A stretch of 64,000 nt of DNA from Holophagae bacterium (GTDB lineage Bacteria > Acidobacteriota > Holophagae > Acanthopleuribacterales > Acanthopleuribacteraceae): assembly GCA_029263455.1 (NCBI GenBank), contig JAJCXM010000007.1, positions 1 to 64,000 of the forward strand, given 5' to 3'. Under the pieces are notes generated by a model that worked only from the letters and a program-made list of their open reading frames with translations, was not told the DNA's origin and searched no databases. Positions 1 to 30,627 of the stretch are shown piece by piece. The first letter of the stretch is position 1; each line of letters begins with the position of its first letter. The position numbers were made by a program, and so were the translations under genes.

Positions 1-3000
1 CCAGTTCTCGTTCTTGAGGCGGTTCGCGTAGTCGTAATCCAAAACCGCCTGGCCGGTGTCGCGGGACAGGCTGATTTGATTGTCGTTGCCGTCATAGCCA
101 AACGAGCTACTCCCGTTTCCGGGCCTGGTGACCGAGGTTAAACGTAAAGCTGAATCGTAAGACCAGGTGGTGGTCTCGTTTTCGGCATCGGTGACGGACA
201 GTGTCTTCCATTGGTTGGCGTAGTGATAGCTGGTGAGCGCGTCATTGGGCTCGGTGACGGAAATGAGCTGGTTAAGGATGTCATAGCTGTAATGGGTGCT
301 GACCAAAGCGCCTGAGGGCGAGGTGCGGCGATGCTCGATGGTGTTGTGGCTGGCGTCGTACTCGAATTCGCTGCGGGTGCCGACATCGTTCTCTTGGAAG
401 ATGGGGCGATCGTAGAAATCAAAGGCGCTGGTTGAACCACGACCCAAGGCGTCCTGCACCCGTGTGGCACGACCCAAGGCATCAAACCCCGAGTAAGTCG
501 TAGTGGTCGCTTCGTCAAGTTCACCGACTGTGTTCGAGCTAAGCAAACCACGCAGGTTGTAGGTGTAGCGTTGAAGGCGAGCGGTGGCATCCAGGGTCTC
601 GATTACGCGATTCTGTTGGTCGTAATGGTTCTCAATAAGTCGAATCTGTGCTCGATCTTGGGCGATTAAGTTACCCAATTGATCGAAGAACTCCTGGGTT
701 TCGATGCCTTTGGCGTCGACCGTAATCACTTGGCGTTCGTCGTCGATGTAGGCCTTGGAGACCGTTTCGCCGCCCAAACCATCAGACGTGATGATTTGCT
801 TATGGACGCGATTGAGCGCGTCATATTCGAGGGTGGTGGTGATGCCGCGGAAATCGACGGCGCCCACCATGTTCTCACCGTCCCAGCCTTGGGTGGCGGT
901 ACCTCGTAAGCTGTCGACGACACGTGTCAGTCGACCACGCGCGTCCATATGACGGGTGGTCACATGTCCGTGAAGATTGGTGTAGGTTTCAGCGACGTTC
1001 CCCTGGTTTTGCGTGTAGGCGAATGATTCTTGGACCGTAAGCCCATCCAGCAGTCTTTGCGTGGTGAGCGGGCGGTTATAGACATCGTAATTAGTGGATG
1101 TTTGAATGCCACGTGCGTCGGTGCTTGATAGGGTGTTGCCGAACACGTCATAGGACCAAGTTGTGGTGTAACCAAGTGGCGCGTTTTCTGTAATCGGGCG
1201 GCCAAGAGCGTCACGCTGAGTTAACGTCACAGAGCCATCGGCATGGTCGCTGCGATCCACATGACCGTTTTCGTTGTAATGCCAACTGGTTCCGAATCCC
1301 TCTTGAGATTCGCTGGTCAGTTGACCCAGCTCATTGATGTGTCGCGTGATCGCGCCGTCTAATGGCGGATGTTCCACAACCTCACGATCATGTTGATTGT
1401 ATGACCAGATCGTGACCTGGTTGTCGGGCTGGTTGAAGCGGATCTCGTGCGTAAGGCGATTGCGGGAATCGTAATTACGTTCAAAACCGGCACCCGTCAA
1501 AGTGTTGGTTTGCGAGACCAGGTTTCCATTGGGGTCATATGTATGAAGGATGCTATGTCCCAAGGGTTGATCGATTGTGTCTAGACGTCTGGCAGCATCA
1601 TAGCTGTAACGTGTCTCATTGCCGTTGGCATCCGATTCACTTCGTTTCAAGCCAACGGCATCGAAGCTGTAGTGAAGGGTGTGATTGGTTGGTAACACTA
1701 GTCTTTTGAGATTTAGACGGGCGTCATACGTGTATTGTGTGGTGGCCCCACGCCAATCCGTTTCAGATTCAATCAGTTCGGTGCCCGTCAAATAGGAGCG
1801 AGACTCGAAAAAGAATCCATTCAGCGTTGTGAATTCAAGCCGGTCCGCATCGTCGTATTGGTAGATGTAAGTGCGATTGCCTGTCTGTTCGAAGGTTTTA
1901 TTGCCATGAATATCGTAACGATAGGTCGTCTCTATGTTTGGGCTTTCAATAAATGGGCCCGTGTCAACATCGATGGAAAGTGGGCGATTCAAAAAATCAT
2001 ATAGGGTTACGGTTGTCAGCGAGCCATTGATTTCAAGGGTGATCTGACCAAGCGGCTTGTAACCGAAACCACGATTTATGCCCTGTGACGCATCAGCGCT
2101 GGCGGTCACAGCTACGAGCTGATCGATCCCATTGTAATCAAATCGTTTAACAAGTCCGTTGGATTCGCTCTGTTGCCGCACCCTTCCCCGAGAATCATGG
2201 ACGGTGGTGATGGTGTAGTTGTCGGGCAGCGTTTTGGTGGCCGGCATGCCATAACGATCGTAGCTCATGTGCGTGCGGTTGCCATTAGGGTCAGTGATCT
2301 CGATCAAATCGCCATTGCGCGCATACTCGAATCTGGTGGTGATTTGGCTGCCTAATCGCTGAGAGCTAATCGAGCCATTGCTTGGATCAATTTGCCAAGT
2401 GGTGGTCGTACCAATCGCATCGACGTGTAGCTGCGGCTTATTCCATTCTTGATCATAAACCCAGGTTTCGGTGGAGCCAGCAAGTGATTTAAAGGTTAGG
2501 TTCCCTTTTTCATCGTAGCCGTAGCTGATGAACTGGCCTGCTTCGTTGGTTTCTGACATAAGTAAGACGTCATTTACCGCCCAGTCCATGGACTTGATGC
2601 CTAGAGGTCCTTCGATTCTGGTTGCCTGACCGTGGAAATTGAATTCATAGTATGTCGTGGCAATCGCGTCCCAAACGGTGGACGCGTCATCCGTGAAGTC
2701 AAAATGAGTGACGATGGGAGGTTGTCCAAACTCTGGATGTTCTGTCAGTGTCCGTACAAAATCGCCTGGTCCAGGGTCCGGTGCATTGGGGAAACTTACG
2801 ACGCTGTGATAGTCGATGTTCAGTACGAGTCCGTTGGCGTTCTCGTGGGATGCCATGTTGTTGGCATAGGGTTCTGGCAGACAAGGATCGAGGTAGGTAT
2901 AGTTATCCTCCCGAGCATCGCGCTGTACCTTTAACAGCCGACCCCACTCATCGTGCGTGAAAAGGATTTCATCGCTCGGTGTCACGCCCAAAGTGGTGAC

Positions 3001-6000
3001 AGCCGTAATCATATAGGTCTGCATTTTCGTGTGAAACTCGTAGTGGAAAACGAGAGAACGTCCAGACGAATCGGTGACGCGAGATATGTGGCCTTCGGTG
3101 TTGTAATAGCAGGTAAGTCGGTTACCGAAAGGGTCAACGATGGCTTTGAAGTTCTGAAAATAAGTAAAAGGGTGTTCCCTTTGCTGTTCGGGATGGATTA
3201 AGGGGCCATATTCGTAGCGCATGCCGGACTTCAGGCGCAAGGTCAGTACGTGAGTTGTAGGATCTTCAAAAAGTTGAGCGTGATTACCTGGGCCTTCGGG
3301 TTCATATCCGTTTCCGCCGCGTGTAAACACCAGACCCGAACCATCGCCGCCGAGCACTTTAACGCGTGTTGCGTCTAACTTGACAATGCGGGTCAGATAG
3401 TTATGTGTCCACCCAATCCCCATTGGATTGTAGTTGATTCCTACGGCTGAGTTGTAGCTGCGATTGAATTCAAGTGTCGGCCCGCGACCCGGGTAAGCGA
3501 TATCGGTGAAACCAGTGGAAAAGCTGCCATTAGTGAGACTGACGTTCTTGACCTGAGTATCGCCAACGCGTAGTCCCGATCGGAATTTTTGCACAATCTC
3601 CACTTTACCGGTGCGATGGATGGGCACTTCCATACCCGATTGCGTGGTGAATACGGCATCAAAGTTCCATGTACGTTTGCCAGGCGTCATATCCAAATCG
3701 AAGATGTAATTGCCCGGTTCTAGATACTCATTGAATACATAAGTGGTCCCGTCCCCAAGAGCAAAAGTAATAACGCCGGGCATGAGAGTTTCAAAACCGA
3801 TTTTGCGGCCAGAAGGTGGGGTTGGCGGGTTGATTGATGTGGGATCGATTTCCATGTGATAGACGTAGTTGGGATCAAAATCGAAGCCCAACCCATCTTC
3901 GTCTATCGCCGCGACTCCGATATCCTCAATGGTTCTTGCATTTATGGCAATACGATTGCTCAGTGTGCGATCGCCTTGCTTGATCCCAACCAATTCGAAC
4001 TCGTATTCTTCTCGTCGTTTCATCTCGAAATCGGCGGGCAACGACAGGTAACGTAGATTCTGGCCGGTGACGTAGCTCGGATCGACCGGATGGATTAGGA
4101 ACGGCTCAAGTCCCGCATAATCGTAAACGTGAATCTCCAGTTGATCGTATTCCTGAGCCTGGTTGACGGCTAACTGTTGTTCGAAGGCCGTAAACACGTC
4201 GCGGTCTGTGTCCATTTCGCAATCGAGTCGTTTATCTTTCGCGGCCGCGCTATCGGTGTTGAGTTTGTAAATCCAGGCATCGTTTTCGATGGCACGAATG
4301 ATCAAGTCTTTGTCGCGCACGACTTTGATAGGGATGCGCCCTGATTGGTAGGATTGTCCAGGGTTCCGGTTTTCGTCGACGTTGAAGAATAGCTGGACGG
4401 CATAGCTCTTGGTGGGGTCGAAATAGCTGTTCTTGGCAATTTTGATGGCTGGTGAAAGCGCCGCAAATGTTTGGATACGTCGCCCGTCTTCATAGATTTC
4501 CCAAGTATGATTTGCGGCACCGATGAAGTTGGTTGGCGTGATTAAGGGGTCTAGAGTGACATCGTCCGTTAGTTGATTTTGTACATTGACCATAAATTCG
4601 GGGATGTTAGATTCGGCAAGTCCTACGGCGTAACTCATGACCGCAAAACGGTGTGGCGGACTGTAATGATGGTCTGTAGGTTCAACTCTCTTGAAATCAG
4701 ACATGAAGGCGGCCGTCCAGATGCCCGGACAAGTCAGGTTATAAACCAGGCTGCCTTCGCCTTGGTTTTCTGTATAAATATCGATGTATGATTGGTCAGG
4801 AAACCGCTCTGAAGGCCATTTCTTCGAGTAGGAACGGATGAATTGGAACTCAAGCGTTTGGTTCTCTGTCGGCACCAATTCACATTCGGTGGTGATGCCA
4901 CAGATGGTTTCAGGATCACCGCAAGGGGCTCCGGAGTAGGGCGGCCCAAAGATTTGATTTTCGAAACTAACTTTTCTTGTAATCGTAAGTGGGTGAGCCC
5001 GAGTAACCGTGGGTTGTTCGTCGGTTAATAGGAACTGATAGGCGGGCCATGTTTGCAGGGCCGGATCGATTTCGACGCTCAAATCATTGAATTCGATATC
5101 TGAACTGATCTTGATACAAGGATCCACTTCGCGTTCAAGCAACGTGGTACAGGCATCTTCAAAGACAAATTCATCGGTGTTGTCTTCGCAGCCAGAAGGA
5201 CCAAGTACACTATTTGGCCAGATAATATTGGCGCATGGACTGTATTCGAGACCCTCGGGCAGTTCGTCAGCGGGAATTTCGAAAGGGATGATGGGAATGG
5301 ACCATTCACTAACGGAACTTGAACTTACCACTAGATAACTAACGGCTTCCCCGGGCCCATCCACAGGTTGCTGTTGATTTAGCATGCCTCTTTCTATGTT
5401 GATCCAGCGATCTAAAGGGCCTCCATCTAGACTGTAACTCTTAAGCTTTGAATCTCGTTCATCGGCGTCGCGATAAAGGAACGGGGTCAAATCATCCTGT
5501 TCATAGCCCAGCACATCAAGCAGGTCGGTCAGTTCTTGTTGGCAGATATCATAAGGTCCATGTTCCACTTCAAGGTTGATGGCTTGGTTGGCGATAGGGT
5601 TTTGTTTGGCATCAACCAACTCGAAGACAATCTTGTATTTATCGTTGGGTCCCATTTCTATGATTGAAGGGTCAACCCCAAAGTCTGTTGGTCGATAGTA
5701 GCGACCGCGAAAATGAGATGGTTCGCCTGGCACGACCCGGACCGTAACAGGAACACCGGCAAACGCAAATGGACCCAAATTTTCAGGTGGATCCGTACTT
5801 ACGAAGTAGTAGTGATAGGCAACCACATCTTGGTTTGGTTCTTCTAATAATTCGTAACTGGGGTTGTCCGCTAGGATCTCTGTAGGTGGCGTGAATGTGA
5901 ATGAAACCACGCCGGAATCATCACTAATAGACTCAACATAAAAATCCAACTTAATAGGATCTAAAAGATAACTTGCTCGATTGCGAATGAGTTTACCGAA

Positions 6001-8394
6001 ATAGTCGTAAGCTTCGAATTTCAGGATAAGTTCGCCACTATCGGCTGGATAGTCTTGGAAGGTTCGATCTAGTGCAACAAAGTAGGCCAGGTTGTAGGCA
6101 GACTCGAAATAGTGGACAGGTTGCTGGATGGGCTCTTCAGATTCAGGCGGGAAATCACTCATAGCTGACGAGGTGCTGCCACCTGACTCCGAATGGTTAA
6201 GCAACCAAATGGATTGGCCCGTTTGTGGAAATAGAGCGCGCGCACCTTCCCAAACAAATGCGTCAATACTCACGGGCTGCTGCGGCAATCGGACGTGAGA
6301 ACCGGCCACTAGAAGATCACGAATCTGATCCAAAAACGGGGTGCTGAAAGGGAGAAAGGGGATCTGATCGATATCGGCGGATGTCAAATCAAGTATCGCG
6401 ACTCCGCTTGAATTGGCCTCTTTCAATAGGTCAGGCACCGACAAAGTGTTAACCGACTCACCAAGGTGATCGATTTTTGTGGCTTCATTCTGAGCAGCTA
6501 CCAGGCCGGCCAGTAATTGGAAAGTACCGGTCCGGGAGTCCGGAATATTTGCGTGTTCGGGAACGGCGCGGGTGGGTCGGGCGTCCGCATCCAACACAAT
6601 GCGACTTGGTTGCAAAAAAAGATCGTCGCCCATAGTCATCGTCGGCACATGGTCGATAGAAAGCATAGCGAAATGAGGCGTTGCATGAACGGGTCTGATG
6701 CCTAAGGCAGCGCCAATCTGGTGTTCTGTCAACATGCTGTCCTGCAAATAGCCGGTTAGCATTTGACGCATATAGTTGCCGAAGGGATAGAAGTCTTCCG
6801 GTATCGTGACCGAATCTGGCGCTAGAACGCCGACCGCACTTTGAAAGCCAAAAACAGTGTATCCGCCCACTCTTAGAGGATTCTTGCTGATCCATTGCGG
6901 TTGCTGTCCTGGAAGTGCAACGCCAACCTCTAGCGTCAGCAAGGCGCCTGGCTCGAACCCGTGAGCAGCTCGAGTTAAAGGGAAATCACCCAACCTGATA
7001 GCGGGGCTGAGGCGCAAAAGCTGGGCAGGCACGCGCCACCTATTGCCGTATTGAGTAACCAGATCGCGGTCCACCTCGTCATAAGGGACTGCATCCCAAA
7101 TCAGAGCTTGTCGATACGCTTGCACCATTGAAGTTTCGTACTGATGTACTTCGAGTCCGGTCTCATCGGTCACGCGGAAAAGGACTTTTTGGTGGAATGA
7201 TGCAGGTATGGTCGCCCAAGTATCTCTGAGTTCAATCACCTCATAGGGCAAGCTTAGAGGTAGGATATTTGGTAAATCGGGGTTGTTTTGCCAGCGATCG
7301 GCCATCGTTGAAAGATCACTGCCTGCGACGTCCAACATCTGCTGGTTTAACCAAGACGCGGCGTCCCGATTCTCTTGATCTTGAAACTGATTGAGCCAGG
7401 CAACCGCATCTATCGATAAGCCTTCAAGCGGATCGATCCATTGAGGGTCAGCATGCCAAGTCCCGCTGGCTGGATCAATGGCAAGCCAGGCTCGGTCGCC
7501 AGCGCCCACCTGATTGCCGCGATAATTGGTGATGGGAAGGTAGAGTTCCAGCCAAACACGTTCTATTTGTATGTGAGATCTGACTGCCTGATTGTCGAAA
7601 ACCCATTCGAACGGGATCTCGGCTGCGCGTAACGTATTATCTACAGCCGCTAAATCACCCAGCCTAAGCCAATTGAGCATGGTTTCAATAGGCACATTAA
7701 CTAGGCCGTAATTGAGACGACCTGTCGCGCCCCAAGCCTCGGCCAGCTCAAGGAAGGCGGCGGCGATGTCGGCATCGTTGCCACAACCGTCTGCTAACAC
7801 GGCTTGAGTTGATTTCCGTCGCCCGTAATAGGGTTCGTAACTTATGTTCTGTTCAAAGTAGCTCAGTAAGGCTGGTGCGCTGTCAGGTAGCGCTTTGTTC
7901 AATGGAGACGATTCTCTTGGAATTTCAATTTGAGCTGCTGGGCCAGACCAATCTATGGACGGCAAGCTATTCGCCTTTAACGGGATGGTATCGCCCCACC
8001 TGGGCGTGATGGATTGGCCGTTTAATCTTTGGGGGGACGAAAGGACCGCTGCGAGCTGTTGGCGGAGCGATTCAGTCTTACCTTGGAGCGTTAGGGCCTG
8101 GGCAAGCGACTGGCATTTTTGGCGAGCTGATCCCACGGCCGGTGACTGCTGATTTGGGTCAGATTTCTGTAGCAGATAGTCCCATAACACCAAGGCGTCC
8201 AGAAGTTCGTCTTTCACCGCGGTCTGTGGTTGTTTGTTTTTCTTTAACCCTTCAAGCAAATGACTTGCGTTTTGATGGATGGTGCTAGCCAACTTCTCGT
8301 GCGTTGCGCGACGCGCAAGGCTCGGGTCAAACGCCGGTTCCTGTGCCAACGTCAGAAATCCTGTGCAAAGCAGGAAGAGAACAGAGCGCCCCAT
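1..8394 (-). CDS. Secreted transglutaminase-like / Rhs YD-repeat protein (C-terminus beyond window)
   Basis: The frame is open from the ATG at 8394 to position 1 (2798 codons) and continues off the window, so the C-terminal tip is unseen. The N-terminus MGRSVLFLLCTGFLTLAQ is a signal peptide. Residues ~165-310 resemble the transglutaminase-like domain found in front of many YD proteins: a G-C-G-N-D block with Cys204, then R-V-W-L-E, N-Y-R-G and W-L-A-I-D-P with Asp307. Arg279 sits where the block normally reads H-V-W. About 1300 residues of unassigned beta-rich sequence follow. Near residue 1630 comes the Rhs entry block (R-S-Y-N-S ... G-I-G-W-T-H-N-Y), then YD repeats (such as YDALNRV, YDVFGN, YDANGN-like units) to the edge. 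It is the last visible gene of the 30.6-kb operon; its ATG is one base after the preceding stop. Known: Rhs shells encase C-terminal toxin or effector modules. Inferred: an exported Rhs effector or surface protein; the cargo cannot be named from this window. Confidence 0.9.
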   Translation of the reverse strand, partial: MGRSVLFLLCTGFLTLAQEPAFDPSLARRATHEKLASTIHQNASHLLEGLKKNKQPQTAVKDELLDALVLWDYLLQKSDPNQQSPAVGSARQKCQSLAQALTLQGKTESLRQQLAAVLSSPQRLNGQSITPRWGDTIPLKANSLPSIDWSGPAAQIEIPRESSPLNKALPDSAPALLSYFEQNISYEPYYGRRKSTQAVLADGCGNDADIAAAFLELAEAWGATGRLNYGLVNVPIETMLNWLRLGDLAAVDNTLRAAEIPFEWVFDNQAVRSHIQIERVWLELYLPITNYRGNQVGAGDRAWLAIDPASGTWHADPQWIDPLEGLSIDAVAWLNQFQDQENRDAASWLNQQMLDVAGSDLSTMADRWQNNPDLPNILPLSLPYEVIELRDTWATIPASFHQKVLFRVTDETGLEVHQYETSMVQAYRQALIWDAVPYDEVDRDLVTQYGNRWRVPAQLLRLSPAIRLGDFPLTRAAHGFEPGALLTLEVGVALPGQQPQWISKNPLRVGGYTVFGFQSAVGVLAPDSVTIPEDFYPFGNYMRQMLTGYLQDSMLTEHQIGAALGIRPVHATPHFAMLSIDHVPTMTMGDDLFLQPSRIVLDADARPTRAVPEHANIPDSRTGTFQLLAGLVAAQNEATKIDHLGESVNTLSVPDLLKEANSSGVAILDLTSADIDQIPFLPFSTPFLDQIRDLLVAGSHVRLPQQPVSIDAFVWEGARALFPQTGQSIWLLNHSESGGSTSSAMSDFPPESEEPIQQPVHYFESAYNLAYFVALDRTFQDYPADSGELILKFEAYDYFGKLIRNRASYLLDPIKLDFYVESISDDSGVVSFTFTPPTEILADNPSYELLEEPNQDVVAYHYYFVSTDPPENLGPFAFAGVPVTVRVVPGEPSHFRGRYYRPTDFGVDPSIIEMGPNDKYKIVFELVDAKQNPIANQAINLEVEHGPYDICQQELTDLLDVLGYEQDDLTPFLYRDADERDSKLKSYSLDGGPLDRWINIERGMLNQQQPVDGPGEAVSYLVVSSSSVSEWSIPIIPFEIPADELPEGLEYSPCANIIWPNSVLGPSGCEDNTDEFVFEDACTTLLEREVDPCIKISSDIEFNDLSVEIDPALQTWPAYQFLLTDEQPTVTRAHPLTITRKVSFENQIFGPPYSGAPCGDPETICGITTECELVPTENQTLEFQFIRSYSKKWPSERFPDQSYIDIYTENQGEGSLVYNLTCPGIWTAAFMSDFKRVEPTDHHYSPPHRFAVMSYAVGLAESNIPEFMVNVQNQLTDDVTLDPLITPTNFIGAANHTWEIYEDGRRIQTFAALSPAIKIAKNSYFDPTKSYAVQLFFNVDENRNPGQSYQSGRIPIKVVRDKDLIIRAIENDAWIYKLNTDSAAAKDKRLDCEMDTDRDVFTAFEQQLAVNQAQEYDQLEIHVYDYAGLEPFLIHPVDPSYVTGQNLRYLSLPADFEMKRREEYEFELVGIKQGDRTLSNRIAINARTIEDIGVAAIDEDGLGFDFDPNYVYHMEIDPTSINPPTPPSGRKIGFETLMPGVITFALGDGTTYVFNEYLEPGNYIFDLDMTPGKRTWNFDAVFTTQSGMEVPIHRTGKVEIVQKFRSGLRVGDTQVKNVSLTNGSFSTGFTDIAYPGRGPTLEFNRSYNSAVGINYNPMGIGWTHNYLTRIVKLDATRVKVLGGDGSGLVFTRGGNGYEPEGPGNHAQLFEDPTTHVLTLRLKSGMRYEYGPLIHPEQQREHPFTYFQNFKAIVDPFGNRLTCYYNTEGHISRVTDSSGRSLVFHYEFHTKMQTYMITAVTTLGVTPSDEILFTHDEWGRLLKVQRDAREDNYTYLDPCLPEPYANNMASHENANGLVLNIDYHSVVSFPNAPDPGPGDFVRTLTEHPEFGQPPIVTHFDFTDDASTVWDAIATTYYEFNFHGQATRIEGPLGIKSMDWAVNDVLLMSETNEAGQFISYGYDEKGNLTFKSLAGSTETWVYDQEWNKPQLHVDAIGTTTTWQIDPSNGSISSQRLGSQITTRFEYARNGDLIEITDPNGNRTHMSYDRYGMPATKTLPDNYTITTVHDSRGRVRQQSESNGLVKRFDYNGIDQLVAVTASADASQGINRGFGYKPLGQITLEINGSLTTVTLYDFLNRPLSIDVDTGPFIESPNIETTYRYDIHGNKTFEQTGNRTYIYQYDDADRLEFTTLNGFFFESRSYLTGTELIESETDWRGATTQYTYDARLNLKRLVLPTNHTLHYSFDAVGLKRSESDANGNETRYSYDAARRLDTIDQPLGHSILHTYDPNGNLVSQTNTLTGAGFERNYDSRNRLTHEIRFNQPDNQVTIWSYNQHDREVVEHPPLDGAITRHINELGQLTSESQEGFGTSWHYNENGHVDRSDHADGSVTLTQRDALGRPITENAPLGYTTTWSYDVFGNTLSSTDARGIQTSTNYDVYNRPLTTQRLLDGLTVQESFAYTQNQGNVAETYTNLHGHVTTRHMDARGRLTRVVDSLRGTATQGWDGENMVGAVDFRGITTTLEYDALNRVHKQIITSDGLGGETVSKAYIDDERQVITVDAKGIETQEFFDQLGNLIAQDRAQIRLIENHYDQQNRVIETLDATARLQRYTYNLRGLLSSNTVGELDEATTTTYSGFDALGRATRVQDALGRGSTSAFDFYDRPIFQENDVGTRSEFEYDASHNTIEHRRTSPSGALVSTHYSYDILNQLISVTEPNDALTSYHYANQWKTLSVTDAENETTTWSYDSALRLTSVTRPGNGSSSFGYDGNDNQISLSRDTGQAVLDYDYANRLKNENW

Positions 8395-8395
8395 G

Positions 8396-20700: not shown

Positions 20701-23700
20701 AACAAGGGCAAAGGGTGTCATGGAGAAAAAAGATGGATCGCGCGTATTTATGAGCCAGCGCACGGATTGCGCGCCGCTAGTACTGCGCAAAAACACAGAC
20801 CGCGACTGGCTACCAGTAAATGGGATGACTAAGCGAGTTATTTCTGCGACCGTCATCAGTGGCGAAATGGGATTGAGGCTGTTGGCATCCGAGAAGAATT
20901 GTAGTTCGACCTGATTAAAACTTTCATTAGCTGTGGGTTTGAACACTTCAAAGGCTAATTCAGGTAATGAACGGCATTCGGCAATCGGTTTGAATGTCAA
21001 TTCATCGCACCTGCTAGTCGCCATGATGTCGCTGAACTCCAAAACACCAAAATCTGTTTCGAGCCGTAGATCAGCGAATTGAAAAGACACCAATCCAATC
21101 GCCGGCGGTAATTCATTCAGCCAATTCGGTGTATCGATTGGAAAGCTAATGGTCGCTGCAGTGAAGCTTTCACCCACATTGCCACATTGACCGCCCTGAT
21201 TGGTGTTATAAGCCAATTCAAAGGGCGCTTCTAAAGCATACGTCTGAGTTTGTGAATCTTGATAGGATTTTGCCCCCAAGAAGATACCTTCAACGCGACG
21301 GATTGGTTCTCTTGAAATAACCGATAACTGCAATTGCCCATTCTTGTTGTGTGCCTCGAATTGCACATCAGATTCAGTCAACCATTCTGTCAAATAGGTC
21401 GACCCGTTCGCGTCTTCGAATTCAAGTCGATAGCGATCTTGCTGGCTATCGAAGGGGATAACTGTCGGATCAATTCTAGGTTGCATGATGGCCGACTCAA
21501 ATTGACGCGAATCGGCATAGAAATCAGTAATTCGGGAACTATTCAAATGGATTGCTGTCAAGTCGATGGGAAATCGATCGGCAGGTAACGTGGCAACAAA
21601 CACCAGCTGTTGAAGTGCTGTATAAGGTTGATCGCCCAGGTCACTTCCGGCCGCATCAAACGTTGTTTGGTGGCTGGTCCCGTCTAAGGTCCAAACGACT
21701 TGTGGGTACATTGGCGTTTGATATAGAACCGTTTGGTTTCCAGCAGCATCGGTAGCGATGAGGCGCAAATTTTGATTTAAGGAGTCTTCCAACCATAGTT
21801 GCGGGCGATAACACCCCCGCAAAATATTTCCTAGGTTGTCGGTCTGGAAATTGGCATGGGTTTGACTTCCAGATTGCAAAGATTGCCAAAGTCCAGCTGC
21901 CGTTTCTTTCTCCAAATGCCAACTGGTCAAGTTCTGGTCGTCAATCGATAGATCATAGGGGACACCCAAGCTCTGTATACCAATGCATCTTCCCTGAGTA
22001 TCAGCACGCTGACGTATGGGGTCGTCGATTTGAAACGAGATATTGGGCGCTAAGGTATCAACCAAGATTTCAAAAGGAATGCCGTTCAGCTCAATCTGGT
22101 AAGTTCCATCGGGCGCGACACCGTTGAGGCCACTGCCATCCCAAACCCACTGGGCGGGGCCCAATGACGCGATCGTTTGATTTGATGCGTACACAACGGA
22201 ACCCGCATCATCTTTCACGCGAAATTGAGCCTCAAACGGGAGCTGGAAGACCTCAAACTGTAAGTGAAGTTCATCCTGTACCCCGTCCAAATTCGGTGAA
22301 ATCGCCCAGCTTGAAGGTGAAACGTTACCAAAAAGCGGTTGACTGGCTACTTGGACAGCTTGGGCCTTGCGAATTCGATTACCAGCTAGATCCGTTGCCG
22401 TGATCCGTAGAAAGTACGAGCCAGCTTGGGGCGGAATCCAAGTGGCGATGTAAGCATTTCGAATGTTCCTTGTTCCCAATAATGCGGTAGGAATCCACAT
22501 ATCTGGCATACCGCCGTCGGCATATTCAAGCTGCCATGACTTGAGATAGCGGTCAGATACCGTTCCTTGCAACCGGACTGCATATTGTGCAGACACGGTC
22601 GCTTCAAAATCGAGCACCATGTTCGAGCTTGGCTGAGCCATCACAGCTGAATGTTCTGGCTGTTCGGGATCAAAGCCCGTCTGGACAATGTTAGCGACAT
22701 GCAAATTGTCAGGTGAAAAGAGGCCCTTGAGATATTCAGCTTGTGACGTGGGTATATGAAAACGGTCTAACGTTTTCCAGTTGGTTATCTGCTGGATAGG
22801 TGGGTAGTTCCAAGGATTATCGGTTAGAACATGTAAGCCATCTGTCAACAGACGCGCATCATCTGGCGGCTCGCTGAAGATATCGGTCCAACCTGTAGCT
22901 ATTTCTGCACTAGGATCAAAAAAGTATAGGTCAGATATTGAATTCGTTGTGTCTTTGGCGGCAAGTATCCAGCTGGAGTCTGCCTTTAGGACGCTGACCA
23001 TGCTGTTTTCAAATTCAGATTTAGACCAATCCACGAGCGAGCGGATGGTCAATGTGTTGAGATCAATCGCAGCTAACACGAATTCGGTTTGCAATTCGAT
23101 GAGGAAATACAGCTCATCCCCAAATTGTTTTTGGTCAACAAATCCATCATGCCATGGGGTAGCCATGGGCAATGGTGAAAAGGCACTTGCGCCTGTATCT
23201 ACAAGCCCAACTGATCCACCTGATTTAACAAGTAACTTGTCCGTCTGAACCCAAGCCAATACTTCATCGGCAACAGGCCGCGTGAATGTCGCAACCGGTG
23301 GTCCACTAGGAAAGGAAATATGGGGATAGAGCAAATACTCCATATCCCCAGATAGATCATCGCTTTGAAACCAAACAAATCCTGGGTTGGCATGATTGCT
23401 TAGGTCTAAGCGGGGCCCAACAATAGGATCGTTAGAGAAGGGGGTTTCCTCGACCCAAAGCGATCCCTTTAAACTTTGGTCAGGCGATTGGTATTGATAG
23501 GTATATTCTGGGCCTGATCCGGAATCGTCATGTGATCGTGAGTAAAGAAAGGCACCGACCGGTCCCCATTGAAACCAAGTATCACCGGGCATGACGTATT
23601 CTTGCTGCGTTGATAAGTTCCAACTGAGATCTTGATAAGCCAGTGCTTCAGATATCTTCGTGCGGTTGGTGTCGATGATAAAGGTCAGCTCTCGAAGTGG

Positions 23701-26700
23701 CAGCTGGCTATTTGGGCCGAAGAGGCGGGCGAAATAGGCACCGTCAGGCAAGGCCTCGCCATCTGGATCTTTGCCGTCAACCGTGATAGATCCTTGACCA
23801 AGCTGAGTCGAGAACGAAAACTGTTCTTCGTTCTTGCGATCAAAAACAGCCAAGCGCAAAGGTGAAATCGGCAAATCCCAATAGAGCGTTAACTGGTCTT
23901 GTACTCCGTCGTTGTTAGGCGATATGTAGGGTTGGCTTGCACCAAAATCACCGTTCCTAATCGAAAAACCAATCGATGCAAGGTTATCTGATTCGTTCGA
24001 TTCGGCGATTTCGTTTGCGGGATCAACCGTCAGGACCAAAGATGATATATCTGGGGCTGCAGTGAATGTGAAATTGATGGTGAGGGTGCCAGGACCAATG
24101 GTGTGAACGGAACTATCTAGCAAAGGTCCATCGATTTGGTTTGCTCTCAACTCAATGGTTGCGTTAGATGCCGTAGTCGCCCCTGTATTTGCGACATCCA
24201 CCGTCAAGGTTGTGGATTCGCCATCTCCTGGCCAATAGGGTTCCAAGGAAATGGTCTGATCTGAAATACTTAGATTTGCAGCGCCTTGCACCAAGATAGG
24301 TATAAAAGCAATGTTGTCGTCTAGCCTCAGTTCAGGGTCGGTCGTTTCCGCGACAAAAACAAGATAGTGACTTCCTGAAAATGTAACTGGATCCACCGTA
24401 AAGTCAAACGTGTGTGCGGCGCCCGCCGACAATGACGCGAGATTGACGCTGTTTGATAATTCAAGACCATCTTGATGATCCAAGCGCAAGTGCACCATGA
24501 TGTCATTTAAGGCGCTATTGCCGTTATTAGAAACATCAATCGAAACCTCTAATGGCTCACCTTGTAGGTGGGGAGGAGGGTCGAGTAACACCGTTGTCGG
24601 GTTGATGTGAAGGTTGCCCAGCAAATTCGCGTTGACTTGAAACGGCAAGGACTGGCCTTGATCGTCTTCGTCTATTTCGTCAAGAACCTGATCGGGATCA
24701 AGACTTACAACCATATTCCCAGTAAAGATCTGGTTGGGTTCGATGACGGATGAAAAACTTGTTGTGCTCTTGCCAGGAAGACTGATCGGAACATTTTGAA
24801 TGGGAATCGAGGTGCCATCGTCCAAGCTAATACGAACGGTCGTATTGCGACTGGCTACGTGCCGATTCACTATGGAGCCTTCTACCTGTACCGGCTGGCC
24901 CACGACTGAAGGGTTTGGCGTAATCGTAAGGCTATTGTTCACCCATTCGAGGTCTTCATGTGATCTTAAATCGATTAGGTGGTTTTCGAGGTTGTTTAGA
25001 AGTCGTCCATCTGGTGCCCCTACAGGCGTTATTTCCGCCCACAAATCAAGTTGCGTCAGCCAGTCAATAACAACCGATATCTGACGGGGATTGCTTGTGG
25101 GCAAGACGATGGTTTGTGTGGTCAGGACGATCCCACCCTGGCTCGGGTGACCGCTGTAAATGGTTAGGTCTGCTTCTGGGGGTGTAGTTGTTCCTAATGA
25201 GAAGATATTAAACTGCAGATCGATCGATTTGGGGATGGTGTCGAAAAGCGTGAAGACATCACCCGTGGATTGATTGGCGAGAATTGCCAGGTCCACACCC
25301 GCATATGCCGGTTGCACATTGACTGGAAACAGGACGAGATTGTTCTCCAGATTTACATCGCCTGTTGCCGTCACCGAAAATGTGACCTGATGAAGGCCAA
25401 TCTCGCTAGGAATCCAGGACAATTGGATAGGTAAGGTTGAGCCCGGAATGAGAGCTGCGTGATTTTGATCGTAAATGGTGATTGCTGGCCCAGATGGTGG
25501 ATCTACTGCAATTTGTACATTGAAGCTACTCGCTTCCACCGTGCCTATATTAACGACCTCACAAACAAGGATAGCGGATTCGTTGGGTACAGGGTTAATG
25601 GGCTGAATGGCGGTTGCTTCAAAACCAAGATCAGGACCTTGAGCTTGGTGAATGTAGGGACGAACCCATTGATTATTGAACGAATTTGATTCTGGTGTAG
25701 TTGTGGTCAATTGAATGACCAAGTCGTAGGCTGATAAATCGGTAGGGTGATTGAATTGAAATGAAAAGATTTGTTGCGTTGCGGGCGCTAAAGTCGGCCA
25801 ATTCTGACTCTCTAGAGGCAAGGTAGATTGGTCGGGCAGTCGCAGGAAAGCATCCAAAACAACATTGTCGGCAGCCACGGAGCCAATATTTTCGAAGACA
25901 CCATTAACGGTTTGCATGTCTCCCAAACCTGCGTTTTCTGGCATGAGGATGATTGAATTTGAATCAATCGACAGGTCAGGAAACTGAGCATTTGCAAGCA
26001 CTTCTAGGGCCATAGCAGTTGAATAACAACCTGCATTCCATGATCCATTGTCGGATTGTGTCGTTTCCAGCAGTTGCAGAAAAACATTGTTGGGTCGATT
26101 CGCCAATTGGCTAACTTTGGCGTATTGGGCCGTGCTAACCAGTTCATTTGCATTGATTGCAAGCATGCCATCGGCGCGAACCATCGTATCTAAGGCTGAA
26201 AAAGCGAGGTCAGTTTGAACTTCTAAACCCGAAACCAGGTTCTGCCGCAAAAAGAATTCGAGTACCAAGCCCGACTCGTAAATGGTGCCGTTGTCTTGTC
26301 CCCAGAGTCCTGATTGCGACTGTTGGGCTAAAACCCAGCTAACCGACGCTTGAATCGCATCTTGAAATTGAGGAAGGTCAGCCTCGTGTAGCGCCAAACC
26401 CGCTAACACCGTATCGAATAGGTTTCCGAGATACGGCGATCTCAATGCGAATGAACCATCGGCACGTTGATTTGCAATCAAGTTAGAGATGCGGCTGATG
26501 TCGTTTTGACCGACCTCCGAGAGCAAGCGCGATACATATGCAGTCTCCTCGAGTGACTGATCTGACCTAGCCTGAAGAACTTGTAAATAGGGTGATATGT
26601 TTAGACCAACCGAACGCAACGCTCTAAGTACCTGGGTCGTATCGCGAACCTTGGATGATTCATGATCAGAGAAAAGACCGTTTGTCTCGCGTGAGAGTAA

Positions 26701-27828
26701 AAAGATCCGAGCCAAGTCGAGGTCGGCCTGATTGGTTCTTCCTTTCAAATGAGGAACGTGAAAGTCAAGTAGGCCTCGACCTGATGTTGTTCTTTGAAAC
26801 TTCCGAGAAACAGCTTCGATGAATGTTGAAAAAACGGGAAAAACGCTTGGCCCAAATACCGACTCTCCCTCAAGGACGACAAAAATCGCTTTAAGTTCTT
26901 GCCTAGATGCTGATGGTACTCGTATCCCCTCGGCATCGATTACTTGTTGTAGCGTCACAAACTGTTGCGTGGCACTTAGGTTCTGGCCTGCAGAAGGATA
27001 AAGACCATTGTCTGTTTGGATCTCAAGACTAGACAACAATACGAACGGGTCTACTTCATCTGCTTCATAAAATCCCATCAAATACAGATCCAGGGGTGAA
27101 TAAGTTTGAAATGGCTGCGCACTGACGAATTGATCTAAACCCGTTTCAATCCAACTGTTTCCATACATGAATGAACCGGAACTATCCAATAGGAAATTCC
27201 AATGGCCCGGATCCGTTCCGTGTAATAAAGCGTTTGACGGGATCCCAGCATCCAAAAACTGAATGTGAGCGAGCCAACGATGGCCTAACTCGTGAAGAAG
27301 AATAGTCTCAAATTGGCGATATGCGTCGGGATTTACTGACAGGAATCGCACCGCCTCACCTAACTCTGAGAAACCGCTTAAACGACCGCTGGACCCAAAG
27401 AATTCGGCTGAATCAAAGAGGTCGCGCCCTATACCTGTAACTGAATTTTTGATGGGCGTTCTGAATCCTGCTGCGAAGTTAAAGTATTCGAATCCACTGA
27501 CCATGAAAACTTCATCAAATACATCACCAAAATCTTGAACGATCTTTTGGTAAAGGGCTGCCCGTAAAAAGGGGTTAACGTCCTGTGGTGACTGAGCGTT
27601 AAATAGGTCTTCATCTTTGGAGAAGCGGTAGACGACGAAGCGATCGCCGACATGTCGCAGGACGAAGTCTGCAGGACTGACCGCCGATGTTTTGTGACTT
27701 TCGATCAGGTTGACAAGGTCCTTTTCGTCAACCGTTAAACATCGATCCACATGAGTCGAACAAAAAAGACAAAATAGGAAAAGTCCCATTACAACTCGAT
27801 CCCCCCCAGAATAGACATTTTTACTCAA
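8773..27828 (-). CDS. Giant secreted multidomain protein: HELGH peptidase-like, alpha-toroid, Ig/CARDB stalk, dockerin-like end (6351 aa)
   Basis: The start is TTG at 27828. An ATG at 27789 begins MGLFLFCLFC, so the start is uncertain, but a signal peptide is present either way. In order: a zinc-peptidase-like region with H179-E-L-G-H183, a candidate third ligand H209 in G-H-W, and M221 in S-F-M-Y-G-N. Next is a terpenoid-cyclase-like alpha/alpha-toroid region (~375-615; repeated G-x-W/G-x-F blocks). CARDB-type sandwiches occupy ~620-1280. Four FlgD/CHU-C-like S-P-N-x-D-G units lie near 1300, 1835, 2540 and 2745. FN3/Ig domains cover ~3120-3700, a discoidin-like domain ~3715-3850, a propeller ~4120-4380 and CARDB ~4460-4900. 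Nine ~79-residue Ig repeats span ~4903-5615, a Hydin/ASH-like domain ~5615-5815 and a propeller ~5820-6310. The C-terminus carries one dockerin-like loop (DIDNNGQINVLDW). It lies 45 bases after the membrane protein gene and overlaps the next start. Inferred: a long surface fibre bearing an N-terminal enzyme-like head; activity is unproven. Confidence 0.9.
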   Translation of the reverse strand: MSKNVYSGGDRVVMGLFLFCLFCSTHVDRCLTVDEKDLVNLIESHKTSAVSPADFVLRHVGDRFVVYRFSKDEDLFNAQSPQDVNPFLRAALYQKIVQDFGDVFDEVFMVSGFEYFNFAAGFRTPIKNSVTGIGRDLFDSAEFFGSSGRLSGFSELGEAVRFLSVNPDAYRQFETILLHELGHRWLAHIQFLDAGIPSNALLHGTDPGHWNFLLDSSGSFMYGNSWIETGLDQFVSAQPFQTYSPLDLYLMGFYEADEVDPFVLLSSLEIQTDNGLYPSAGQNLSATQQFVTLQQVIDAEGIRVPSASRQELKAIFVVLEGESVFGPSVFPVFSTFIEAVSRKFQRTTSGRGLLDFHVPHLKGRTNQADLDLARIFLLSRETNGLFSDHESSKVRDTTQVLRALRSVGLNISPYLQVLQARSDQSLEETAYVSRLLSEVGQNDISRISNLIANQRADGSFALRSPYLGNLFDTVLAGLALHEADLPQFQDAIQASVSWVLAQQSQSGLWGQDNGTIYESGLVLEFFLRQNLVSGLEVQTDLAFSALDTMVRADGMLAINANELVSTAQYAKVSQLANRPNNVFLQLLETTQSDNGSWNAGCYSTAMALEVLANAQFPDLSIDSNSIILMPENAGLGDMQTVNGVFENIGSVAADNVVLDAFLRLPDQSTLPLESQNWPTLAPATQQIFSFQFNHPTDLSAYDLVIQLTTTTPESNSFNNQWVRPYIHQAQGPDLGFEATAIQPINPVPNESAILVCEVVNIGTVEASSFNVQIAVDPPSGPAITIYDQNHAALIPGSTLPIQLSWIPSEIGLHQVTFSVTATGDVNLENNLVLFPVNVQPAYAGVDLAILANQSTGDVFTLFDTIPKSIDLQFNIFSLGTTTPPEADLTIYSGHPSQGGIVLTTQTIVLPTSNPRQISVVIDWLTQLDLWAEITPVGAPDGRLLNNLENHLIDLRSHEDLEWVNNSLTITPNPSVVGQPVQVEGSIVNRHVASRNTTVRISLDDGTSIPIQNVPISLPGKSTTSFSSVIEPNQIFTGNMVVSLDPDQVLDEIDEDDQGQSLPFQVNANLLGNLHINPTTVLLDPPPHLQGEPLEVSIDVSNNGNSALNDIMVHLRLDHQDGLELSNSVNLASLSAGAAHTFDFTVDPVTFSGSHYLVFVAETTDPELRLDDNIAFIPILVQGAANLSISDQTISLEPYWPGDGESTTLTVDVANTGATTASNATIELRANQIDGPLLDSSVHTIGPGTLTINFTFTAAPDISSLVLTVDPANEIAESNESDNLASIGFSIRNGDFGASQPYISPNNDGVQDQLTLYWDLPISPLRLAVFDRKNEEQFSFSTQLGQGSITVDGKDPDGEALPDGAYFARLFGPNSQLPLRELTFIIDTNRTKISEALAYQDLSWNLSTQQEYVMPGDTWFQWGPVGAFLYSRSHDDSGSGPEYTYQYQSPDQSLKGSLWVEETPFSNDPIVGPRLDLSNHANPGFVWFQSDDLSGDMEYLLYPHISFPSGPPVATFTRPVADEVLAWVQTDKLLVKSGGSVGLVDTGASAFSPLPMATPWHDGFVDQKQFGDELYFLIELQTEFVLAAIDLNTLTIRSLVDWSKSEFENSMVSVLKADSSWILAAKDTTNSISDLYFFDPSAEIATGWTDIFSEPPDDARLLTDGLHVLTDNPWNYPPIQQITNWKTLDRFHIPTSQAEYLKGLFSPDNLHVANIVQTGFDPEQPEHSAVMAQPSSNMVLDFEATVSAQYAVRLQGTVSDRYLKSWQLEYADGGMPDMWIPTALLGTRNIRNAYIATWIPPQAGSYFLRITATDLAGNRIRKAQAVQVASQPLFGNVSPSSWAISPNLDGVQDELHLQFEVFQLPFEAQFRVKDDAGSVVYASNQTIASLGPAQWVWDGSGLNGVAPDGTYQIELNGIPFEILVDTLAPNISFQIDDPIRQRADTQGRCIGIQSLGVPYDLSIDDQNLTSWHLEKETAAGLWQSLQSGSQTHANFQTDNLGNILRGCYRPQLWLEDSLNQNLRLIATDAAGNQTVLYQTPMYPQVVWTLDGTSHQTTFDAAGSDLGDQPYTALQQLVFVATLPADRFPIDLTAIHLNSSRITDFYADSRQFESAIMQPRIDPTVIPFDSQQDRYRLEFEDANGSTYLTEWLTESDVQFEAHNKNGQLQLSVISREPIRRVEGIFLGAKSYQDSQTQTYALEAPFELAYNTNQGGQCGNVGESFTAATISFPIDTPNWLNELPPAIGLVSFQFADLRLETDFGVLEFSDIMATSRCDELTFKPIAECRSLPELAFEVFKPTANESFNQVELQFFSDANSLNPISPLMTVAEITRLVIPFTGSQSRSVFLRSTSGAQSVRWLINTRDPSFFSMTPFALVDDNRSQIVKNIIAPTAEIQVDMDDPIWCVPSACEVLTGKAQRPLTIQQSFLPTLPAGYQLHGADCIAESASCHQLTAITAVNASSTVTRNLTFEWDDDQNDLLIINIIQLRDELDWDLVFDFQLPNGTCASHIQTISFDQSAACSQDSTLPVTFAPSTPPTPVKRFSPNDDGQQDQLNWTLNIGSNATLRAFIATQAGQPVRLIRPWLPVTSGTLVLAWDGKNELDQVLADGSYRLHVISEGCGGRQSELQSPIILDTQPPAVLIHQPLSGAVLLPNDAVVSVNDESGIAESNLRLTSVADPSQSTLIWTSQNQSLDQASVVSLSSTQPGLYDLLLEALDKAGNTSNDLVQIELFPNDVIRSFECIPRVFSPNNDGIADQVSVSFYLEEPATVTLSVAGSTSGNILVNQPMPVGQSQISFDGTIGAQALMTGSYSMTLSAQTTGVSSALLTFKVDVNRPQVSFAAPTPDQLFEVPNIELEINVSDPQLQSWLLTGTFANGHIAPIYQSSNEANALIIPVDLMVDGPTSFMLHAQDTVGNWRQETRTVELDTLPPILTVEPLTTTVFEPGESVTLTAEWSDEHPESMEIVLDSQLVFVQSLGPQTSGSLNMPFDVPYLPEDHYPFLVRCSDSLGHVTERNFTVAVDIQPPQVSLLPPANNPIRSEWPIIGTAWDSNLDRFELELALISGGIPGPFQRLVTRSQPITQAELYRLAVLPPDGEYRLRLIAWDRQGRHASTILDFSVDRTPPITPVGASIQTLIVGQGSNRRGVVTLNWVANSESDLQGYIVSRNGILVSTLLEAPFYSDENLSNGSWTYQIQAIDLAGNQSLPTTPLTAIVDILPPNLAIFVPEYDALVGTQVTIQGSVIDLHLAQWTLMAGAGSNPTNWSTIQTSTQSLPFGSLGTWNPISLTSGIYQLRLFAEDLFGNQAESRTQVSLDSLAPEPPGKPTVILIGNSLYVNWTWSVSPDVMQYIVYANGGRNGQISDPPFEYVNPPDGTYVFEVASEDLAGNKSALSVPSDPYILDRNAPHAIWVQPVPDTRFDSTLNLFVRFDAQDIDTAEFQYREASQSWTTITTILDPPWNTIWDATSLADGLIELRCLATDLTANTDPAPTVIQVEKGDIDPPQPPSGVTAVLMGDEVQLNWDLASDLDLAETLIFRDQLQIAALPIPQDTYADSAIQLGEIYSYQLQSKDNSGNLSPLTAPIEVRIQAVTVETPPSLYVQQPFELVGVAPAGYLTVTVSDESTPIQTVNVEADRSFSIAVGGLQQGLHVLSFQAKQGTTSATYPLDHSVQISGDPDPVTQLEATINADIPPHVELTWVEPISPIEGYRICKNGEHVDGNELVTPLISQFTSTFQPLSLANMIDGSDLTLWQSTGDSEVFMMTFNESVQLGHLVFDWDANGAFPHTLRIEAWLDGEWFVISDVPIANTARYDSQYFDPLPGVFSTDFRLTLNASSAFGIWEFEWRQPTTRAAPLDQWTDPDDRFGIHTYEVKTVSHWGKQASKQLTIMLGDADPPLPPSNLSATVTGDEVNIGFTSSASPDVAFHRIRRNQIIRTDLTVPINSFQDTGLPVGSYAYTVTAVDNSGNESTAIGPVEIVITNSAVNAPILAANIDTIAKRVVLDWIDLNPLIQDYELLRKASSQAPNAFERVNSGPPFIAKTWIDRPSGGNFDYQVIASYQNGTSIVSNQVSIEFPNFGPLILSPNVNRSTAIIAPAPTDVEGIAKANHYISMDVDRQIQGTVTSSAEHRIRDLRTTAIVPDHLSLSSSGQWLAAADASTVEITDLINQQTTNLSVTQNAHSLKFDPLSRFLTLIDGPDQMPGTLRGFRLDTGQEWQIASVSAVSSFLWVDLNHVVFATGTHVMILDVSAGTQALLWISASVIRQILLDSLRQRIFVVTSTDPSEFWSLSFQGEAIHVMDIDLNSRVFAVPLSAQLIVQATTGQAEIWSLDENHQITGSQALDLPMDHQLVGTFADAGLIFTQNPQSTLFAGDRLSNDPFDEIGWAQTNLAFEILPASILIAQLDGPQTHIRHWTPAGYFKYELPPLSAGHHLLTARSTNPFDLTKSEPSSLNLFTSLTHLPDLRLDAQFFLALPTLAVPGDAISFLITASNQGADQAQDVWMQWWLTDSNSNISTPFSPTYVAKIDARTSVQSGQLLNTSPLNPGTYRMSAQIDPDNDIQEQSEDNNIAHREFYLQQAGQTSMEIAEIIDARAGDPVSFTTTIANTSTLLSELHLSVGIENEQGQVVHSFEPVTFDLPQNQHQISNWTWDPQQSFAGIYRVRARLDQSAMTILESTQSFDLFQEPDLRINLLAIPQPLPTAQAFDVQFKVSNKASHVYMTQLSWTLKVCRLTGELLSQDQGLLPNLLPGGFSNVDAVLSDLVVVPDVEVRVSVFQDGQLAAVWTEIRTVDPSIIQSANLGIYPGSLRPLVGTPLEVSARISNTGNQNLTTELTMELQRWQAPDFVTLTSENWQVSDLAPTQAAQQAWQLDSQSYTAGRHRLLLSSDQGFISDRSVEFDFLEDLVPRIVITGIPQLGVGEPDITPEITVVDNETPMPIAQIWLNQQPYTSGTSLSQDGAYLLEVEVTDQSGHFAAKREFFSIDSQAPQIDVLGIVDQGIYTDMVLPWVIISDPHLFDHTVLLDDMPYSLGTPIETLGMHLLAVTAIDVLGHQSQQTIEFEIISSPSTLLAFNGIQPNGLYNVPVIVNIDLFNGANLRGFEWLDQPVSAPLLIDQPGPNWLHAWAEAVDGSWTQHIFAQVIMDYTAPVIEVQGVANQHYRNDVTPIVFVDGAPASMTQLQLNGQPFQSGTPISIEGSYQLQVIAIDEAGNVAQASRDFVIDKTAPVIFLAGVQHGLTYQTDVNLTWNLSDPWLDRQEARLNGALIQSPFVVRTSGYYIVEILGTDLAGNSASEKRAFTLDRDAPLILISGVFDGQVTATSLTPIVDILDDDLTFSSVLLNGVPFTSGDLLTADNDYTLIVEAHDATGNIVIRTLQFSIDTVPPQIQVQGVVDGATYNNPVTPVIQINDAHPGSFQFMLDRVPFSSGTSVSALGNHTLTLRAEDLAGNLSKTQVNFTIEGEGAPIIQILGVQNSAFYNQTVFPDYSVQLADPNTTMVRLNQQPFVGGSPVSNEGNYLFNVEASNKFGTVIKFADFVIDQTPPAIQVYGVVHQAQYLGTVTPYVDISDTYLSTHELTLNGLPFISGTPLSQQGSYILTAHATDLAGNASESIITFQINAPSTIGVFPNPVDFGNAFVAGFEDRQLFIINQSPQPLVLDEWQIDGSQAAFFSILSGTPLNLGPYQSGSIWLRYQPSELGVHQALLAIGSTQSIIQDISIELLGLRSASVVKIPEFIPFGRRTMNQSATTQFLLQNLSNQDQFILDELIDGLSIFSTDLDTPEQIPANASQNVTAYFLPPQTGPYSAKLTWAIDDPVLPYVESTLCGLGAMQTAWSAKPRFVNDDELKIWGNPDSSDLFVSRGPKLSHLQSNSLIPLLEAGENDQISGHNLTLDPAQALWFGHPVGLFSGNMSGMAQVACFDEIKSWTWATLIDAGYFLTNDNLLFQYQDGLRQIEADQSLTEVVDICWDAVNQDLLLLIPNQNEIRRLDIQTGQVTNWQSHALLGFATQLVAGADEHWTNHGTSIQRWSLGIPTEVVSSPIQITNLARTLEGIYWSTEKQDAIQFLSDGSPTSETVWQRTTPLVHTAAIDQETNDLVFVDQSDGSLYKQTNGSVPQWIMTHPDLQSIILMTYQQPNTYLAMDSAGDLFSINSLTPSIQLVQSTNLNQPLALVIGEPPLVLQGNQIFELTLPQPTPLISLAGNPVDMVPVPGANRIYWVADSANQTIWEVDLNLVTSTSAKSLTFIPDSIATFPDATLWVTSNGFVFDAFSEQLILGPFPSQKGSLIKSPTQDDLAWLIDHQAHTLFDLLPANSGFENWRDTGPSQWDIDNNGQINVLDWVISTTRALIDLQLPGSTQP
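10984..13122 (-). repeat. Nine tandem ~79-residue Ig-like repeats inside the 6351-aa protein
   Basis: About 2139 bases encode nine consecutive units of ~237 bases. The consensus is roughly P-x-I-x-V-x-G-V, Y-x-x-x-V-x-P, L-N-G-x-P-F-x-S-G-T, G-x-Y-x-L-x-V-x-A-x-D-x-A-G-N and F-x-I-D. Unit 3 is the most degenerate. The pattern matches the bacterial Ig-like domains that build cell-surface stalks. Divergence between units is high, so recent unequal crossing-over is not indicated here. Confidence 0.85.
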
Positions 27829-27873
27829 TCCAACGAGAATTTCGAGTCATTAATTTATCCATTCGCGTCTGGA

Positions 27874-29892: not shown

Positions 29893-29937
29893 TGGCAGGT
29901 CCCGGTCTGCTGGCTCTTGCCATTCAATTTAACTCCG

Positions 29938-30627
29938 TCATTCCACCGTCTTTACGTACCCATCCATCAAACTGACTCTTAGCAATCGTAATCCTTCCGC
30001 GAAAAAAGAAGCCTTGCTGCGTCCAAACTTACGTTTTGAATAGACAATCGGAACTTCTATGATCTTTTTTCCTTGAGCGATGGCGTTCTGAAGGATTTCA
30101 ACTTGGATATCGAATCCCGTCGATTTTAAGGTTATGCCGTGAAAAAGCTGCTTTTGGTACATCCTGTAACCACTAGTCAAATCAGTGATACCTACATCAG
30201 AACGCAGCGCTAGGTACCAATTCAACCATTTACTTGAGATTGCCCGAACCCAATTCCCATCGTGTGAATGGCCAAACATGTACCTGGACCCAATTACGAC
30301 ATCGGCACTAACCATCGCCTCCAGCATGCTTGCGACGTGTCTGGGATTGTGAGACCCATCGGCGTCGATAGTCATTACCAAAGAATACTTTGATATGTGA
30401 ATCCCTTGGATAAGTGCTTGCCCATAGGATTTTCTTGTCTTCAGATAGGTCACGTGGTCTGTTTGGTTGCACAGGGCCTCGGTCCCGTCGCCGCTAGGCC
30501 AGTCGACTACAATACACTCAAAGCCAGGGACATTCGCTGGTATCGCCTGTTGAATCGATTCAAATAACCAAGGAAGATTCAACACCTCGTTCTTGGTTGG
30601 AATGACAATAGACAGCCCAGGTTGCAT
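29938..30627 (-). CDS. Polyprenyl-phosphate glycosyltransferase, GT2 family (DPM1/CsbB-like)
   Basis: 229 residues, one GT-A domain. The N-terminus S-I-V-I-P-T-K-N-E is the usual nucleotide-sugar strand. D88-A-D90-G-S-H-N-P is the metal-binding D-x-D motif characteristic of dolichol-phosphate mannosyltransferase relatives. The later G-I-T-D-L-T-S-G-Y-R-M-Y and E-V-P-I-V-Y-S-K-R blocks also fit. No C-terminal membrane segments are present, as in short DPM1-type enzymes. The usual V-D-D-G-S-x-D-G-T strand reads V-V-D42-W-P-S-G-D-G-T, so the second Asp and the Gly are replaced. The ATG at 30627 has GAGGA about six bases upstream. It is the first gene of the run leading to the giant secreted protein. 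Expected role: load a sugar from its nucleotide donor onto a polyprenyl phosphate for the GT-C-like partner downstream. The sugar cannot be read from sequence. Confidence 0.88.
   Translation of the reverse strand: MQPGLSIVIPTKNEVLNLPWLFESIQQAIPANVPGFECIVVDWPSGDGTEALCNQTDHVTYLKTRKSYGQALIQGIHISKYSLVMTIDADGSHNPRHVASMLEAMVSADVVIGSRYMFGHSHDGNWVRAISSKWLNWYLALRSDVGITDLTSGYRMYQKQLFHGITLKSTGFDIQVEILQNAIAQGKKIIEVPIVYSKRKFGRSKASFFAEGLRLLRVSLMDGYVKTVE

What the first reader, a model, noticed from the sequence alone, without database searches (positions are those of the whole stretch)
1..30627. Two lipid-linked sugar-transfer genes leading into a giant-protein operon
A GT2 of the DPM1/CsbB type and a YfhO/GT-C-like membrane protein are followed, with gaps of 45, 45, overlap and 1 base, by a 6351-residue secreted protein, a small exported protein and an Rhs protein. 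The arrangement suggests a dedicated glycosylation pair for the surface proteins. It mirrors the csbB-yfhO logic, but with a protein target.
Basis: inference. Interest (0 to 1): 0.62.

Follow-up and report, generated by a model that had tools for sequence, protein, structure and literature searches.

The report
Sugar-transfer pair beside giant-Rhs operon
Two genes that look like a two-step sugar-transfer pathway sit at the head of an operon for a 6,351-residue secreted protein and a toxin-type Rhs protein; related bacteria show that the sugar genes travel with this operon in one family only, so a dedicated decoration role is plausible but its target is unproven.

Summary
In detail: GT2, a YfhO-like membrane protein, a 6351-aa giant, a small exported protein and an Rhs protein lie head to tail on the minus strand (gaps 45, 45, -4 and 1 bp, depending on start choice). 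The Rhs is cut by the contig edge.

The core of the locus is small-giant-Rhs. It recurs in Sulfidibacter corallicola and Holophagae 8_bin.70, with giants colinear over about 6,000 residues at 29% identity, and, diverged, in other Acidobacteriota. A GT2 sits directly upstream in all three genomes of this family. A YfhO-like ortholog occurs in exactly those three of seven family genomes: between GT2 and giant here, at the end of the Rhs tip array in 8_bin.70, 0.5 Mb away in S. corallicola. So the link is real but lineage-specific; giants outside the family had no pair in the stretches read.

The enzyme types are supported (DPM-synthase-like GT2; multi-pass protein with invariant ND..[LF]H after TM1). 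The 'csbB-yfhO' label is weak: no GtrA flippase, no membrane helix in the GT2, YfhO similarity only in the last 50 residues. A protein target is not shown, and the idea has a precedent (pgfS-pgfM1/cnm). The small protein resembles the PilP/GspC HR domain, a lead on export.

The parts
29938..30627 (-). GT2, DPM-synthase-like polyprenyl-phosphate glycosyltransferase, 229 aa, no membrane helix
   Evidence: Pfam Glycos_transf_2 67 bits; family profile matches P. furiosus DPMS 5mlz E 4e-28; PTxNE, DxDGSH, IGSR motifs invariant; no TM segment
27874..29892 (-). YfhO-like/GT-C-type multi-pass membrane protein, 672 aa, TTG start
   Evidence: 7-10 hydrophobic segments; YfhO C-terminal piece 14 bits here, about 30 bits in two orthologs; ND..[LF]H motif after TM1 invariant in nine relatives; orthologs in S. 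corallicola and 8_bin.70
8773..27828 (-). giant secreted protein, 6351 aa: HELGH metalloprotease-like N-terminus, toroid-like repeats, CARDB, FlgD-like and Big Ig-like domains, dockerin-like EF-hand at the C-terminus
   Evidence: full-length colinear homologs at 29% identity in G002 and S. corallicola
8396..8776 (-). small exported protein, 126 aa, PilP/GspC HR-domain-like
   Evidence: family profile matches PilP 2y4x E 5e-4 and 2lc4 E 6e-4; homologs directly before the giant in G002 and S. corallicola
1..8394 (-). Rhs (YD-repeat) protein with degenerate transglutaminase-like N-terminus, cut by the contig edge (alternative start 8430)
   Evidence: RHS_repeat E 1e-48, DUF6531, Transglut_core 23.5 bits; N-terminal homologs in the same 3 of 7 genomes

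Best explanation
GT2 and the YfhO-like protein form a two-step envelope glycosylation route. The GT2 loads a sugar from a nucleotide donor onto polyprenyl phosphate on the cytoplasmic side. An unidentified, non-GtrA flippase turns it over. The YfhO-like GT-C-type protein then transfers the sugar to an acceptor on the outer side of the inner membrane. In Acanthopleuribacteraceae this pair has become attached to a conserved small-giant-Rhs operon, and the most likely acceptor is a product of that operon in transit through the periplasm, the giant first of all. Basis: the enzyme types and the genetic attachment are shown by sequence and comparison; the chemistry follows from family knowledge; the acceptor is inferred.
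For: GT2 directly upstream of and co-directional with the giant locus in all three family genomes that have it. YfhO-like, giant and Rhs N-terminus share exactly the same three genomes of seven; within two genera one species has all of them and its congener none. Of eight neighbouring control genes none shows that pattern. YfhO-like lies inside or at the edge of the locus in two of three genomes. DPMS relationship and intact catalytic motifs. Invariant Asp motif after TM1 of the YfhO-like family. Precedent for a GT2/GT-C pair serving an adjacent surface protein: PMC5856776.
Against: Giants outside the family lack the pair in the stretches read, so it is not needed for their basic function. The locus GT2s are not shown to be one clade (p-AU 0.40 does not reject it). 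YfhO-like is unlinked in S. corallicola. No excess of N-x-S/T or S/T/P-rich stretches in giants with the pair. No GtrA flippase found. The AF2 model of the YfhO-like protein is too poor to show a GT-C fold. By label shuffling alone the shared presence pattern has a 1 in 15 chance.
Confidence: 0.45

Rival explanations
1. The pair modifies a general envelope polymer (O-antigen side branches, lipid A or an exopolysaccharide), as in three-component O-antigen/teichoic acid systems. It sits at the giant-Rhs locus because altered surface sugar helps the producer, for example by masking a receptor for its own toxin.
For: Most characterized GT2+GT-C pairs act on polymers (PMC8035078). The YfhO-like gene is unlinked or only at the edge of the locus in two of three genomes. 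A GT2+YfhO-like pair exists without a giant in G065. No glycosylation signal in the giants.
Against: Shared presence/absence with the giant and Rhs. No obvious polysaccharide cluster among the neighbours annotated here.
Confidence: 0.35
2. Chance neighbours: unrelated envelope genes that landed upstream of the giant in this genome, with GT2s recruited independently in the relatives.
For: GT2 phylogeny unresolved; GT2 homologs are common, 5-9 hits per genome; YfhO-like unlinked in S. corallicola.
Against: GT2 adjacent in 3 of 3 genomes although the proteins are only 30-34% identical; YfhO-like beside the Rhs tip array in G002, where a chance location within 15 kb of the locus is below 1% in a 10.4-Mb genome (back-of-envelope).
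Confidence: 0.17

Closest known systems
pgfS-pgfM1-pgfE-pgfM2 of Streptococcus mutans (PMC5856776)
   Same: GT2 plus GT-C-type membrane protein next to a gene for a surface protein; modification of that protein is shown there, inferred here
   Different: PgfS is membrane-bound and PgfM1 belongs to the PMT-2 family; epimerase and second membrane protein are absent here; target Cnm is a far smaller adhesin; Gram-positive
CsbB-GtcA-YfhO three-component LTA/WTA glycosylation (PMC5836110, PMC8035078)
   Same: GT2 plus YfhO-like pair
   Different: No GtrA/GtcA flippase in the genome, GT2 without membrane helices, YfhO similarity restricted to the C-terminal piece, no teichoic acid expected in an outer-membrane phylum
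Rhs polymorphic toxin loci with orphan tips (PMC3482391)
   Same: The operon's Rhs in G002 and S. corallicola is followed by displaced Rhs tips
   Different: Preceded by a small HR-like protein and a secreted giant of 5,500-7,000 residues; no T6SS marker was looked for

Membership tests
CsbB-GtcA-YfhO three-component system | GT2 (GT-A) enzyme with catalytic motifs of polyprenyl-phosphate glycosyltransferases | tested here: met
   Pfam and motifs; DPMS 5mlz E 4e-28
CsbB-GtcA-YfhO three-component system | GT2 with C-terminal membrane helices (CsbB type) | tested here: not met
   hydropathy shows none in this and the G002 GT2, only a weak one in S. corallicola
CsbB-GtcA-YfhO three-component system | GtrA/GtcA flippase (PF04138) | tested here: not met
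   no match in 7 of 7 family genomes; 7 named control genomes match; another flippase type is possible
CsbB-GtcA-YfhO three-component system | YfhO family GT-C protein | tested here: inconclusive
   14 bits here vs cut-off 28.5; 30.5 and 29.8 bits in orthologs, C-terminal 50 aa only
CsbB-GtcA-YfhO three-component system | GT-C fold | tested here: inconclusive
   AF2 pLDDT 39 with 3 sequences; fold search empty
Pgf-type protein glycosylation | co-transcription with and modification of the adjacent surface protein | not testable with these tools
   needs RNA and protein work
Rhs polymorphic toxin | RHS/YD repeats | tested here: met
   RHS_repeat E 1e-48
Rhs polymorphic toxin | variable C-terminal toxin with immunity gene or orphan tips | tested here: inconclusive
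   cut off by the contig end here; orphan tips in G002 and S. corallicola
PilP/GspC HR domain (small protein) | HR-domain sequence similarity | tested here: met
   profile E 5e-4 to PilP 2y4x; but no single-sequence hit and no Pfam hit
PilP/GspC HR domain (small protein) | binds secretin N0 domain | not testable with these tools
   three secretins are encoded in the genome

The most novel reading that the evidence does not exclude
An Acidobacteriota export system in which a PilP/GspC-like HR-domain adaptor guides a secreted giant of over 6,000 residues and a polymorphic Rhs toxin out through a secretin, with a lineage-specific GT2/GT-C pair that glycosylates the giant in the periplasm.
Probability: 0.2. 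Interest if true: 0.7.

Novelty: new variant of a known kind. Interest (0 to 1): 0.42.

Why it matters
If the pair decorates the giant, this would be a lipid-carrier glycosylation route dedicated to a very large bacterial secreted protein and to a toxin locus, in a phylum with few studied surface proteins, and S. corallicola is a cultured species in which it could be tested. Even without that, the small-giant-Rhs operon is a conserved unit for which I found no description.

Tried and rejected
AF2 of the YfhO-like protein with two orthologs (pLDDT 39) and of the small protein alone (pLDDT 50): not usable; the PDB fold search of the former gave no GT-C match and is not counted either way. GT2 tree: locus GT2s neither shown nor rejected as a clade. 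Sequon and S/T/P counts: no contrast between giants with and without the pair. Teichoic acid target rejected: Acidobacteriota have an outer membrane (general knowledge). Active transglutaminase in the Rhs N-terminus thought unlikely: the catalytic Cys is missing in both relatives and the usual His position is not conserved in any of the three. The S. corallicola genome paper does not mention Rhs, giant genes or glycosylation, and no held paper combines Rhs, giant gene and Acidobacteri-.

Full report
Observation. All five genes are present where stated, on the minus strand, closely spaced. The 1-bp gap before the Rhs applies to the start at 8394; the longest ORF starts at 8430 and overlaps. The window begins at the end of contig C7 of a 6.25-Mb, 95% complete assembly, so the Rhs is truncated by the assembly.

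Enzymes. The GT2 is intact and DPM-synthase-like, without a membrane helix by hydropathy. The membrane protein is only weakly YfhO: 14 bits against a cut-off of 28.5, while its two orthologs score about 30 bits, always through the last 50 residues or so. An ND..[LF]H motif just after the first membrane helix is invariant in nine relatives, at the place where GT-C enzymes carry a catalytic acid (family knowledge). I take it as GT-C-type without structural proof. Several relatives outside the family are tandem proteins of about 1,290 residues.

Locus comparison. Seven genomes of the family are held. The giant's N-terminus, the Rhs N-terminus and a full-length YfhO-like protein are each found in exactly three: this one, G002 (Holophagae bacterium 8_bin.70) and G006 (Sulfidibacter corallicola M133; names). 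In G002 the order is GT2, small, giant (6342 aa), Rhs, displaced Rhs tips, then the YfhO-like gene on the other strand. In S. corallicola it is GT2, small, giant, Rhs, with the YfhO-like gene half a megabase away. The three giants align over about 6,000 residues at 29-38% identity. Congeners of this genome and of G002 lack giant, Rhs N-terminus and a full YfhO-like ortholog. Given that this genome has everything, the exact match has a 1 in 15 chance by shuffling; none of eight control genes gave that pattern. The GT2s cannot be counted this way because GT2 homologs occur in every genome.

Beyond the family. Giants with the same N-terminal region occur in G391, G373 (two), G158, G212 and G339. 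In G391, G158 and G373:C50 the next gene is an Rhs; in G212, G373:C42 and G339 the contig ends, or the frame is broken, before that can be seen. None of the stretches read holds a GT2 or YfhO-like gene. Small exported genes directly before several of these giants resemble the small protein by profile comparison (hhalign probability 83%). So the core unit is small-giant-Rhs, and the sugar pair is a family-level addition. Conversely G065 has a GT2+YfhO-like pair and no giant nearby.

Mechanism. Best reading: polyprenyl-P-sugar synthesis by the GT2, flipping by an unknown protein (no GtrA match in any family genome), transfer by the YfhO-like protein to an acceptor outside the inner membrane, most likely an exported product of the operon. 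The acceptor is inferred. Nothing in the giant's sequence marks it as glycosylated. The concept of such a pair beside its protein target is known from S. mutans (PMC5856776); most other characterized pairs act on polymers (PMC8035078).

Small protein. Its family profile matches the HR domain of PilP (E 5e-4) and, not significantly, GspC, domains that dock to secretins (family knowledge). The single sequence finds nothing, and the diverged set from other families finds nothing. The genome encodes three secretins. This suggests, but does not show, that the operon's products leave through a secretin.

Verdict. Real association, ordinary enzyme classes, unproven target; a new variant of a known kind.

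Noticed in passing
window 41604-63907 (-), continuing to contig C7:67495 and 67459-81639: Second giant Rhs operon: a 4,726-aa giant, an Rhs protein of about 8,300 aa ending in a PT-HINT pretoxin domain and a weak AHH nuclease match, then an Imm11 immunity protein; an ECF-like sigma factor and a kinase lie upstream.
   Followed up: partly
window 8396-8776; L044, L039, L037, L041: Small exported protein with PilP/GspC HR-domain similarity, a regular companion of the giants; paralogs without a giant in G001:C29 and G002:C29.
   Followed up: partly
G002:C69:238971-249453; G006:C1:9142096-9147364: Displaced Rhs tips, 84-95% identical in their repeat part to the main Rhs in G002, typical of polymorphic toxin recombination.
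   Followed up: partly
G006:C1:8600001-8605391: Second S. corallicola Rhs, 96% identical to the first over 1,760 residues, without a giant or GT2 next to it.
   Followed up: partly
window 27280-27294 and 8842-8871: Giant N-terminus has an intact HELGH site in all three family members but most giants outside the family lack it; a dockerin-like EF-hand closes the giant only in the family.
   Followed up: partly
window 30819-31031 (-): Possible 70-codon ORF between the P0006 gene and the GT2, read by eye; not tested.
   Followed up: no
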